A model generated the notes under the pieces. That model was given only the letters and a program-made list of their open reading frames with translations, made no database searches and was not told the DNA's origin. This document shows positions 12,159 through 15,337 of a stretch of DNA of 64,000 bases, one piece after another. Numbering within the stretch: the stretch's first letter is position 1; each line of letters starts with the position of its first letter. The position numbers were made by a program, and so were the translations under genes. The stretch comes from Catenulispora sp. EB89 (GTDB lineage: Bacteria > Actinomycetota > Actinomycetes > Streptomycetales > Catenulisporaceae), in contig NZ_JBGCCU010000027.1 of NCBI RefSeq assembly GCF_041261445.1, positions 62,001-126,000 of the forward strand, read 5' to 3'.

Positions 12159-12986
12159 ATGGCGACGGTGAACTCCGTCGACATATGTGTGGAGACATTC
12201 GGCGAACCGGCCAGCCCGGCGATCCTCCTGATCGCCGGCGCCGGCGGTTCGATGGACACCTGGGACCCGGACTTCTGCACGGCACTCGCCGCCACCGGCC
12301 GCCTCGTCATCCGCTACGACCACCGCGACACCGGCCGCTCCACGCACTACCCGCCAGGCGCCCCCGACTACAGCTTCTACGACCTCCTCGCCGACGCCAC
12401 CGCACTGATCGACCGCTTCGCCCACGGCCGAGCGCACGTGGTCGGCATGTCGATGGGCGGCACCATCGCGCAGTACCTCGCCGTGGACCACCCGGACAAG
12501 GTGGCCGCCCTGGCGCTGGTCTCCACCAGCCCGATCTTCCCCGCAGGCCTGCCCCCGCTGACCCAACGCCTACTCGACGCCTACGGCCACATGCCCACAC
12601 CGAACTGGGCCGACAAAGAGGCGACACTCGACCACCTCGTCCAAGGCGCCCGCATCCACGCCGGCCGCACCACCTTCGACGAGCACTCGGCGCGCGCCAC
12701 CGCCCGCCGCATCATCGACCGCAGCCTCGACCTCCGCACCGCGGGCAACCACAACGCGATGAGGCAGGAGGCACGCCCGGAGCGCGACTTTCGGGCCCTG
12801 CTCGCCGAGGTGGCGGCACCGGCGCTCGTCATCCACGGCACAGACGACCCGATGCTGCCGCAGGAGCACGCGATAGCCCTGGCCGCCGCCATCCCGCACG
12901 CCGAGCTGATGTTGCTGGAGGGAGTCGGGCACCAGGCGCCGCCCCGCTCCAGCTGGGATCAGGTGATCACGGCACTGACCCGCTGA
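12159..12986 (+). CDS. Alpha/beta-fold hydrolase
   Basis: 275 residues, a typical single-domain alpha/beta hydrolase. The nucleophile elbow GMSMGG puts the catalytic Ser near residue 98; the acid is probably the Asp in HGTDDPM (about 227) and the His lies in GVGHQ (about 256). The oxyanion-hole region is AGAGGSMDTWD. It is likely an esterase or hydrolase of small substrates; the substrate is not predictable. An in-frame GTG at 12147 is an alternative start, and the sequence does not decide between them. It begins 29 bp after helY and may be read through from it. Confidence 0.85.
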   Translation: MATVNSVDICVETFGEPASPAILLIAGAGGSMDTWDPDFCTALAATGRLVIRYDHRDTGRSTHYPPGAPDYSFYDLLADATALIDRFAHGRAHVVGMSMGGTIAQYLAVDHPDKVAALALVSTSPIFPAGLPPLTQRLLDAYGHMPTPNWADKEATLDHLVQGARIHAGRTTFDEHSARATARRIIDRSLDLRTAGNHNAMRQEARPERDFRALLAEVAAPALVIHGTDDPMLPQEHAIALAAAIPHAELMLLEGVGHQAPPRSSWDQVITALTR

Positions 12987-13466
12987 CGCGACGCCCGGCA
13001 GCCTCGCATTCGCGACGATCGCAGGACTGTGGCACCGGGATGCCGGCGCTGTCGGTGGCCAACGCTATAAATGCGTATAAGGGGCGATAATTCCCTAACA
13101 AAATGGGCGCCCTTGCTTGATGTGTGGGTGTGGGTGGCTGGGGTGTGGTGGGTGCAACGGGTGCGGTTTGTTGGTGGGTTTTAGGAGCTTTTTACGGCTT
13201 CGCAGGGTTTTAAGAAGGATCCGCTGGGTGGCGCAGTTCGGTGGTGTGCCTGGGGATGCGTTGGCGGCCGGCGGTTGTTCATGTGCACGACCGCGCGCGG
13301 GTCCGGGTCACTGCGCACGCGTTTGGTCTGGCGGCTGGCGGCCGCGTGTGGTGGGTGCCTGAAAGTCAAGGGCAGGGCCTCCGGCGGCGCCTGCGCGGCG
13401 AGCGGCACTCGCTCCGGGGAGGGGGGCCGCGCTGTCTGCCGGCGGACACTGCTTGTGGTCGCCTAT

Positions 13467-13623
13467 GTCCCGGGTTCCCCGTCGCATCGTCGCCTCACGG
13501 AAGCAGACCGGTCCGGTGGTATCAAGTCGGATCACACGCTGCTTGGGTCGGGTTTCATGCGACTTGACACCACCGGCCCGGTCAGCTTGGCTACGCCCGC
13601 CGACGCGACGGGGAACCCGGGAC
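13467..13623. repeat. Stem-loop element A (157 bp)
   Basis: The ends are a perfect 19-bp inverted repeat (13467-13485 with 13605-13623, beginning GTCCCGGGTTCCCC). An inner stem (13507-13529 with 13560-13582) pairs at 21 of 23 positions. The 30-nt apical loop (13530-13559) includes CACACGCTGCTTGGGTCGGG. An asymmetric internal region of about 21-22 nt on each side separates the two stems. The element could act as single-stranded DNA or as RNA from either strand. Confidence 0.9.
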
Positions 13624-13726
13624 AACCCCGGCCTGTGGTGTGGACATGGTCCACTCGGGTGCGCACACCTGCGGGTGGTGACGTGGCGCGCCCAAGGGCG
13701 CGGGAATCCTTCCCACAGGTGGGGTT

Positions 13727-13888
13727 GTCCCGGATCCCTCGTCGCTGTCGGCGGTGCTTGCACAACCAGCCCGGACTGGCGGGGTCAAGCCGAACGAAAC
13801 CCGACCACAGCAGCGTGTGATCCGGCTTTACCCCGCCAGGCCGGGATGGTTCCCTTTAGGGCGACGTCAGCGACGAGGGATCCGGGAC
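13727..13888. repeat. Stem-loop element B (162 bp), inverted copy of A
   Basis: The ends are a perfect 21-bp inverted repeat (13727-13747 with 13868-13888, beginning GTCCCGGATCCCTC). The inner stem (13770-13792 with 13823-13845) pairs at 21 of 23. The loop (13793-13822) matches the reverse complement of loop A at 26 of 30 bases. Stem bases that differ from A are matched by changes in the partner strand. Confidence 0.9.
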
Positions 13889-14389
13889 GAGGTGACCAAC
13901 ACTCGAACCGCCGCCGAGGCGGGGGGTTGGGGATCCCTCAGAGTCTCGAGTGCCCCCGCCGGAGGCGCCTGCTTTTGACTTTCAGGCACCCACCACGCCC
14001 GACGATCGCCGCCTACGCAACGCATGCGCAGTGACTCGGACCGGTGCGTGGTCGTGCACAAGAACAACCGCCAGCCGCCAGCGCAACCAGCGGGGCACCA
14101 CCGAACTGCGTCCCCCAGCGAGGTCACCAAACCTTAGGCGAAGCCGTAAAAAAACGCCTTTGACTGTCAACCCACAAACAAACCGCAGCCGCCACCAGCA
14201 CCCACACATAGGTCAGCAGCGCCACAAAATGCCGCCGCCGAGCTCGCAGACCACGAGCCCCGCGCCACGACGGTCCGGCCAGCCCGCCAAGCGAGTACCG
14301 CCGGTCCCAACCGCGCCGCCGACCTCGCACACTGCGAGTCCGGCGCCGCCTCTACCGCCCGGCCATTCCCGACCGCGCCGCGCCGCCCC

Positions 14390-15337
14390 CTACCGCTCCG
14401 CCATCACCCGCGTCACCCGAGCCATCGCCGCCTTCACCCCGAACTTCTCCGCCAGCATCGTCGCCATCACCGGGTCCTTCGGCTCGCGCGGCAGCACGTC
14501 GTCGTGCTCCACCACCGGTGCGTCGCGCACGACGCGCACCACCGTCGGTGCCGCGTCCAGGTAGGCCACCGCCTCCGCGATGCGCTTGCGCTGCGCCGGC
14601 TTGAGCGTTGACGCCGGGTCCGTCGCCGCCGCGCGTACGCCTGCCAGGTCGCGGTACTGCGAGATCAGTGCGGCCGCCGTCTTCTCGCCGATGCCCTGGA
14701 CGCCAGGGAGGCCGTCGCTCGGGTCGCCGCGCAGCGCGGCGAAGTCCGCGTACTCGCCGCCGCTGATGCCGTACTTCTCGCGGAGGACCGCGTCCGTGAC
14801 CGGCTCAAGCTTGGTCACGCCCTTGCCGATGTTCAGGACGCGGATCTCGCGCGTGTCGTCGACCAGCTGGTACAGGTCGCGGTCCATCGTCACGACGTCC
14901 ACCGGGCCGCGGCCGTCCCAGCGCTCGGCCAGGGTCGCGAGCACGTCGTCGGCCTCGAAGCCCGGTGCCTCGGCGCGGGCGATGCCCAGGGCGTCCAGCG
15001 CGGCCTCGATCACCGGGACCTGGGGGCTCAGCAGGTCCGGGACTTCTTCGACGTCCACGCCCGCCTCGCCCGCCGGCGCCTCCTCCAGTACCCGGTGTGC
15101 CTTGTACGACGGGATCGCCTCCACCCGGAACGCCGGGCGCCAGTCCGCGTCGAAGCACGCCACCAGCCGGTCCGGCTTGTACGTGGCGATCAGGTAGCTG
15201 ACGGACTCCAGCGTGCCGCGTACCGCGTTCACCACCATCCCGTCGGGGGAGCGGATGGTGTCGGGGACGCCGAAGAAGGCGCGGAAGTACAGCGTCGGGG
15301 TGTCGAGCACCATCAGCCGCTCGGGGTTCTTCGCCAT
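14390..15337 (-). CDS. 5'-3' exonuclease, FEN-type, stand-alone
   Basis: 315 residues equal to the N-terminal exonuclease domain of DNA polymerase I, with no polymerase part. Metal-binding regions are visible: MVLDTPTLYFRAFFG at the start, VACFDADWRPAFR, EADDVLATLA (about 130) and TMDRDLYQLVDD. The helix-hairpin-helix clamp is GVQGIGEKTAAALI. Such enzymes cut 5' flaps and RNA primers during replication and repair. The ATG at 15337 follows TAGGAT with 6 nt spacing (minus strand), indicating a leaderless mRNA. It is divergent from the symporter gene, with a tandem repeat between them. Confidence 0.92.
   Translation of the reverse strand: MAKNPERLMVLDTPTLYFRAFFGVPDTIRSPDGMVVNAVRGTLESVSYLIATYKPDRLVACFDADWRPAFRVEAIPSYKAHRVLEEAPAGEAGVDVEEVPDLLSPQVPVIEAALDALGIARAEAPGFEADDVLATLAERWDGRGPVDVVTMDRDLYQLVDDTREIRVLNIGKGVTKLEPVTDAVLREKYGISGGEYADFAALRGDPSDGLPGVQGIGEKTAAALISQYRDLAGVRAAATDPASTLKPAQRKRIAEAVAYLDAAPTVVRVVRDAPVVEHDDVLPREPKDPVMATMLAEKFGVKAAMARVTRVMAER

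What the first reader, a model, noticed from the sequence alone, without database searches (positions are those of the whole stretch)
13467..13888. Two stem-loops with conserved loops and compensated stem changes
Elements A (13467-13623) and B (13727-13888) are inverted copies. Three outer-stem positions differ between them (13474/13734, 13476/13736, 13479/13739) and each is matched by a change in the partner base (13616/13881, 13614/13879, 13611/13876). At least five inner-stem pairs also covary. The unpaired 30-nt loops stay 26 of 30 identical. Conserved loop plus covarying stem is the pattern expected of selection on structure, which suggests an undescribed structured RNA or a single-stranded DNA recognition hairpin.
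Basis: partly seen in the sequence, partly recalled or inferred. Interest (0 to 1): 0.88.

Follow-up and report, generated by a model that had tools for sequence, protein, structure and literature searches.

The report
Paired structured hairpins in mobile repeats
The two stem-loops are real and belong to a repeated mobile DNA element of soil actinobacteria whose hairpins keep their shape while their letters change, with signs that the fold of one strand is what matters, and in a sister genus similar hairpin pairs enclose genes for an HNH nuclease of unknown function.

Summary
Alone it is weak: the three compensated outer-stem pairs are one fixed A/B subfamily difference, present in all 11 full-length copies found in this genome. 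One-sided transitions are mostly wobble on one strand (about 46 events against 6), which assigns a strand: both hairpins read outward from the element's centre. The hairpins lie in a 1.1-kb gene-less element (13106-14223) with inverted ends and 8-bp target duplications, often between convergent genes. There 5 of 6 DUF222 loci, coding HNH proteins, carry such hairpins on one or both sides. Four single matches, three of them weak, fall in two other families. Best reading: a mobile element with an inverted pair of structured nucleic acids (RNA favoured, ssDNA possible), the window copy being a gene-less relative of an HNH-nuclease-bearing type. Transcription, mobilising enzyme and protein binding are unshown.

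The parts
13098..13105 (.). left copy of the 8-bp target-site duplication ACAAAATG
   Evidence: uninterrupted target repeat elsewhere in the genome
13106..13466 (+). left end (inverted repeat GGCGCCC...ATGTGTGGG) and left arm of the element
13189..13203 (-). conserved arm motif GCGAAGCCGTAAAAA (left copy, read outward)
13467..13623 (-). hairpin A; minus is the strand on which one-sided changes tend to be wobble
13624..13726 (.). central spacer between the divergent hairpins, no gene seen; motif GGGAATCCTTCCCACAG
13727..13888 (+). hairpin B; plus is the strand on which one-sided changes tend to be wobble
13754..13763 (+). side mini-hairpin on the 5' side of B (GTG-CUUG-CAC; GGC-GNA-GCC in other copies), read by eye
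13852..13861 (+). side mini-hairpin on the 3' side of B (CCC-UUUA-GGG; CCG-UUUA-CGG in other copies), read by eye
13889..14223 (+). right arm and right end (inverted repeat) of the element
14138..14152 (+). conserved arm motif GCGAAGCCGTAAAAA (right copy)
14224..14231 (.). right copy of the 8-bp target-site duplication ACAAAATG

Best explanation
Window 13106-14223 is one copy of a transposable, gene-less element of a Catenulispora-type genome that carries an inverted pair of about 160-nt structured hairpins. Shown here: many copies; inverted ends and 8-bp target duplications; neighbouring hairpins divergent; stems held complementary while their letters change; one-sided transitions mostly wobble on the strand that reads outward from the centre; the same anatomy in a sister genus, where pairs of such hairpins enclose DUF222-HNH genes. 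Inferred: each half is transcribed outward (or exposed as single strand), folds into a cruciform-like hairpin with two side hairpins, and that fold is bound by the element's protein, in the full-length version the DUF222-HNH nuclease, to mark element nucleic acid for mobilisation. The window copy has lost, or never had, the gene and was moved in trans.
For: Copies: (11 full-length, about 30 partial places; only 40 of 210 candidates scored). Mobility: of 100 held loci tried, 29 have both ends; 143 of 232 flank letters match at spacing 8 against 70.7 in permutations (z 8.7, 0 of 2000 as high), 7 of 29 exact; uninterrupted target repeats at 8 places. Covariation. Strand: about 46 to 6 events on a tree, 36 to 6 genome-by-column cases, p 3e-6; loops lean the same way but much less (81 to 61; Fisher p 3e-5); stem-only folds more stable on that strand in 109 of 121, whole hairpins in 95 of 121. 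Orientation: 40 of 40 neighbouring pairs divergent; 36 of 39 sister-genus loci hold both hairpins, all 36 divergent (loci chosen by DNA likeness to a two-hairpin copy). Gene-bearing relatives.
Against: A sigma-70 scan found no promoter and no expression data exist here. PF02720 gave no match in any of the 7 Catenulispora-type genomes searched, so there the hairpins are kept, and copies moved, without that protein or by another enzyme. The 8-bp duplication is a transposase signature rather than an HNH one (general knowledge); no transposase with these ends was found. Hairpin-free elements with the same ends exist (L249, probably L247), so the hairpins are not needed for movement. No clear target duplication was seen in the sister genus. 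DUF222 loci of G279 and G280, held with 1.5-kb flanks, and one of six in G012 show no such hairpin. About 21 further one-sided events gave other mismatches.
Confidence: 0.45

Rival explanations
1. The selected molecule is single-stranded DNA: each strand of the element carries one well-formed hairpin in its 3' half, recognised during excision, replication or recombination.
For: G-T is also the better mismatch in DNA (general knowledge), so the strand result fits. The 5' side hairpin is often GC-GNA-GC, recalled as an unusually stable DNA mini-hairpin (sequences). In G337 and G433 single hairpins lie 576 and 366 bp from a phage-integrase gene.
Against: I saw no relaxase, HUH or integron integrase with the repeated copies, though I did not search for those families. 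8-bp duplications point to cut and paste of double strands. The integrase link rests on two weak model matches (E 2.0e-3 and 4.1e-3).
Confidence: 0.3
2. Matched changes come from hairpin-templated copying or gene conversion between arms and copies, with no selection on a fold.
For: Double transversions occur, copies look like mosaics, and hybrids are seen.
Against: It does not predict wobble mainly on one strand (about 46 to 6), nor recurring side hairpins. The giant dyad formed by the two element halves is kept less well (76-84% in its two longest arm pairs; 70% over the element) than the local hairpins (96.8% standard cells).
Confidence: 0.1
3. The hairpins are bidirectional terminators or 3'-end stabilisers, tolerated or useful between convergent genes.
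For: Flanking genes by a GC3 heuristic: own genome 7 convergent, 2 tandem, 0 divergent, 2 undetermined of 11; G012 15 convergent, 13 tandem, 1 divergent, 9 undetermined and 1 too near a locus end of 39. Very stable folds.
Against: The favoured strand is not that of the transcript first entering each hairpin from its neighbouring gene. The main stems are not listed as terminator-like. Gene-bearing relatives exist.
Confidence: 0.12
4. An ordinary miniature element whose palindromes are leftover structure without function.
For: Inverted ends, 8-bp duplications, no gene, hairpin-free siblings.
Against: Structure kept over two genera with unrelated stem letters.
Confidence: 0.1

Closest known systems
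REP13E12 / DUF222-HNH repeats of mycobacteria
   Same: Repeated DNA linked to HNH/DUF222, without defined function (search passages of PMC13061034 and PMC10589994); sister-genus copies here carry the same domain pair.
   Different: The window copy has no gene. I did not test whether REP13E12 has a hairpin pair; DUF222 loci of G279 and G280 show none.
HEARO / omega-RNA with IscB (mobile HNH nuclease plus structured RNA)
   Same: HNH protein and structured nucleic acid in one mobile element, gene-less copies common (recalled for HEARO).
   Different: Only the HNH stretch matches IscB, far below its cut-off (19.7-22.5 against 175 bits); no Rfam match at gathering score in the window region; two inverted hairpins instead of one RNA.
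Miniature inverted-repeat elements (MITEs), BIME/REP, ERIC
   Same: Non-coding, dispersed, palindromic, often at gene 3' ends, with target duplications (MITE); comparison recalled.
   Different: About 1.1 kb with two covarying hairpins of about 160 nt and a strand-specific wobble excess.
IS110 bridge RNA, integron attC
   Same: Structured nucleic acid of a mobile element (recalled).
   Different: 8-bp duplications and inverted ends; IS110-type genes in L288 and L292 look like nested insertions; no integron integrase was searched for.

Membership tests
Miniature inverted-repeat transposable element | terminal inverted repeats | tested here: met
   [26 protein letters not shown] ends, (47 pattern hits in the genome, 0 for the reversed control)
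Miniature inverted-repeat transposable element | target-site duplication of fixed length | tested here: met
   8 bp, z 8.7, 29 loci with both ends of 100 tried
Miniature inverted-repeat transposable element | autonomous transposase with the same ends | tested here: inconclusive
   none found; ISL3 genes checked and end pattern scanned
REP13E12 / DUF222-HNH repeat | DUF222 plus HNH reading frame inside | tested here: not met
   window copy has none; no PF02720 match in 7 Catenulispora-type genomes; met in relatives of G010 and G012
HEARO / omega-RNA | match to an Rfam model or to IscB above cut-off | tested here: not met
structured RNA | covariation beyond phylogeny | tested here: met
   own R-scape-like test, 6 of 49 pairs, 0 off-structure (A2 and A3); 6 of 45 on and 1 off in A4
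structured RNA | transcribed | not testable with these tools
   no expression data; sigma-70 scan found nothing
intrinsic terminator | stem followed by U-tract | tested here: not met
   main stems not listed
integron attC | integron integrase partner and core sites | not tested
   considered from memory only

The most novel reading that the evidence does not exclude
The outward-read hairpins are RNAs (two per element) that load a DUF222-HNH nuclease, forming a ribonucleoprotein mobile system unrelated to IscB/Cas9 outside the HNH module; gene-less elements such as the window copy are passengers. DUF222-HNH repeats such as mycobacterial REP13E12 might then be relatives of an RNA-assisted mobile system.
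Probability: 0.2. Interest if true: 0.92.

Novelty: new variant of a known kind. Interest (0 to 1): 0.74.

Why it matters
It gives a structure-conserved hairpin of mobile elements a strand, an anatomy, a range (two genera of one family, Catenulisporaceae by recalled taxonomy, with four single matches in two other families) and a candidate protein partner of unknown function. DUF222-HNH repeats remain unexplained; a bound RNA or ssDNA would make their function directly testable.

Tried and rejected
Rfam: five matches, microRNA-like and HCV names, all below gathering scores (E 0.0017 to 0.71), which suit any long hairpin; discarded. ISL3 as source transposase (8-bp duplications): 3 genes in the genome, no matching ends. 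A neighbour gene shared by solo hairpins: none stood out; most shared frames lie inside the repeat. Other places with the element's ends and no hairpin: short elements or contig ends, no transposase seen. Plasmid and phage collections: no match (DUF222-HNH protein against plasmids). A first target-duplication script was off by one base at each end (p 0.33) and replaced. Deamination as cause of the wobble excess: loops lean the same way by 81 to 61 (terminal branches 51 to 25) and junctions by 25 to 17, less than stems; that the loop is A/C-rich is my count by eye. Strand test inside G012 with strictly shared pairs is uninformative (6 against 6 cells); a wider G012/G010/G013 set gives 398 G-T against 24 A-C, but was aligned to a model of that strand and includes badly placed columns. 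Models were first made on the less favoured strand (R1) and rebuilt (R2, R3). Rows left out: one search used 81 chosen sources and kept 121 matches at E up to 3e-22, so weak or broken hairpins seen (for example in L024, L026, L031, L033, L041, L088, L097, L101, L102) are not in A2, which favours well-paired copies; one search was cut at E 3e-9. Counts (98, 121, 139 ...) probably include both strands of one hairpin; counts from searches that score 10, 15, 40 or 150 candidates are lower bounds. Weak DNA matches in G011, G015 and G024 were not found again by models. Papers: on DUF222 and REP13E12 I saw listings and passages of two papers; on Catenulispora repeats and related subjects listings only; none of what I saw mentions a hairpin pair; 9 of 10 paper searches used.

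Full report
WHAT IS THERE. The two palindromes exist at the stated coordinates, and the three named stem differences are compensated. They are the core of a larger imperfect dyad, 13106-14223, between a plus-strand alpha/beta-hydrolase-like frame ending at 12986 and a minus-strand exonuclease-like gene at 14390-15337 (gene names by reading, not by a search). I take the dyad to be gene-less: the frames that overlap it differ between strands and phases, and indels between copies are not multiples of three.

A MOBILE REPEAT. Searching the window's own 11.9-Mb genome with the 1.2-kb region gives 113 matches, 11 of them (nearly) full-length at 87-100% identity, and about 30 further partial places; 40 of 210 candidates were scored. 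All 9 other same-genus genomes searched hold it; of 31 genomes outside the genus 3 had weak DNA matches. Ends read GGCGC..ATGTGTGG (47 pattern hits in the genome, none for the reversed control). For 29 of 100 held loci tried, both ends could be placed; flanking letters match at spacing 8 (143 of 232, permuted mean 70.7, z 8.7), with 7 of 29 exact and a sharp peak at 8. Four of the seven, the window copy included, share ACAAAATG on one strand or the other, apparently because they sit in copies of another small repeat; that repeat occurs uninterrupted, allowing one mismatch, at 8 places (6 exact). An element of 260 bp with the same ends and no hairpins exists (L249), and probably one of about 200 bp (L247).

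THE A/B DIFFERENCE COUNTS ONCE. Each of the 11 full copies has one A-type and one B-type hairpin, in either orientation. Evidence had to come from more lineages.

COVARIATION OVER THE FAMILY. A covariance model found hairpins in 10 of 16 genomes tried, all ten of the genus. An alignment of 121 hairpins, 117 distinct (40 own, 34 G009, 21 G001, 14 G004, 8 G007, 2 G008, 1 G002, 1 G006; weaker matches left out), has 96.8% standard cells, 26 of 50 pairs with double changes and covariation 0.260 against 0.029-0.098 for slid partners; further pair types do not exceed shuffles. A third stem type (GTTCTGGGTCCC/GGGACCCAGAAC) and others are each complementary. With a 173-nt subfamily (G002, G003, G008), G005 and the sister genus added, 36 of 45 pairs show double changes, and the test gives 6 on-structure and 1 off, next to a pair.

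WHICH STRAND. In the first orientation the non-canonical transition-type stem cells were A-C rather than G-T. On the tree there are about 46 Watson-Crick to A-C events, 6 to G-T and 21 to other mismatches; by genome and column 36 against 6 (p 3e-6), by column 13 against 3 with 2 ties (p 0.02). On the other strand the A-C cells are wobble pairs. The alignment was fitted to the first orientation, which works against this result. A mutation bias explains at most part: loop substitutions lean the same way by 81 to 61, junctions by 25 to 17 (stem against loop Fisher p 3e-5; terminal branches only, p 0.03). Folds are more stable on the other strand in 109 of 121 (stems only) and 95 of 121 (whole hairpin). 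Realigned on that strand, 45 representatives give 49 pairs, 27 with double changes; 26 of 2205 cells are broken or gapped by my sum of the table. For the window this means minus for A and plus for B, both outward from the spacer 13624-13726. All 40 neighbouring pairs in that alignment are divergent in this sense; 41 hairpins stood alone in their held stretch.

ANATOMY. P1 of about 19-20 pairs; a 5' side mini-hairpin (GGC-GNA-GCC or GTG-CUUG-CAC); P3 with a conserved GUGUCAAG/CUUGAUAC part; a loop of about 30 nt with ACCACAGCAG in many copies; and a 3' side mini-hairpin CC(C/G)...(G/C)GG. RNAalifold did not draw the side hairpins; they are read by eye from the alignment.

SISTER GENUS AND BEYOND. 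G012 (same family, other genus, one 9.9-Mb contig) gave one hit with the second model (11 of 197 genomes of the order had a match, the other ten being of the genus). DNA search then gave about 40 element places there (40 of 308 candidates scored), and the third model 150 matches, the number it scores. G010 and G013 have 4 and 1. Of 39 G012 loci held and chosen by likeness to a two-hairpin copy, 36 contain both hairpins, always divergent. Stem letters are unrelated to Catenulispora's. Of 16 longer G012 elements examined, five (L286, L289, L290, L295, L296) encode one protein 78-97% identical between copies, interrupted by a Mutator-type transposase in L286; nine (L287, L288, L291-L293, L298-L301) hold IS-type transposases by Pfam or by likeness to a Pfam-named one; L294 and L297 were not identified. 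The protein is DUF222 (E 7.6e-12 in L290; not reached in L295) plus HNH. A PF02720 search, independent of hairpins, found 6 loci in G012: hairpins lie on both sides in four (L309, L322, L324, L317/L290), on one side in L320, and none was found at L313. In G010, L308 has both hairpins; L312 and L316 lie at contig starts and could not be judged. These proteins are 44-47% identical to that of L308, and their hairpins have their own complementary stems. Among 296 genomes of the class, four outside the family have one match each (G279 E 9e-8; G280, G337, G433 E 1.6e-3 to 4.1e-3); in G337 and G433 a phage-integrase gene lies 576 and 366 bp away. DUF222 loci of G279 and G280, with 1.5-kb flanks, show no such hairpin, and the 7 Catenulispora-type genomes searched have no PF02720 match.

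POSITION. By a GC3 heuristic, 7 of the 9 determinable own copies and 15 of the 29 determinable G012 copies lie between convergent genes, and 0 and 1 between divergent ones. Selection against promoter damage would give this too.

READING. Shown: a transposable repeat, structure-preserving evolution, strand preference, divergent pairing, and enclosure of DUF222-HNH genes in the sister genus. Inferred: outward RNA or exposed ssDNA, protein recognition, mobilisation in trans. The absence of DUF222 in the Catenulispora genomes searched and the transposase-like 8-bp duplication are the main difficulties: either a different enzyme moves these elements, or the nuclease was lost recently.

Noticed in passing
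window 13060-13105 and 14224-14240; L130, L238-L245: Another small repeat (TATAAGGGGCGANAATNCCCTAACAAAATGCCG) seems a preferred target of the element; 8 uninterrupted copies in the genome.
   Followed up: partly
L249 (G000:C29:41858-42117), L247 (from G000:C2:11862): Hairpin-free mini-elements with the same ends and arms (second end of L247 read by eye).
   Followed up: partly
L130-L141, L042, L044: Third hairpin type occurs singly, preceded by arm sequence with one to several 60-85-bp tandem units and followed by a small GGTCC-TTCGGACC hairpin; no second end seen.
   Followed up: partly
G012: L287, L288, L291-L293, L298-L301 (and L290, L286): The space between the divergent hairpins is often occupied by IS-type transposases (IS4, IS110, DUF772, ISL3, Mutator), as if a landing site or a trap.
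   Followed up: partly
L303:3815-5111, L304:3830-5234: Single hairpin a few hundred bases from a tyrosine integrase gene in two genera of another family (weak model matches).
   Followed up: partly
contig ends of G000 (for example C11, C18, C21, C27, C28, C31, C55, C56): Assembly breaks fall in this repeat.
   Followed up: no
arms of both genera (window 13189-13203, 14138-14152; G012 arms): GCGAAGC recurs in arms of otherwise unlike elements.
   Followed up: no
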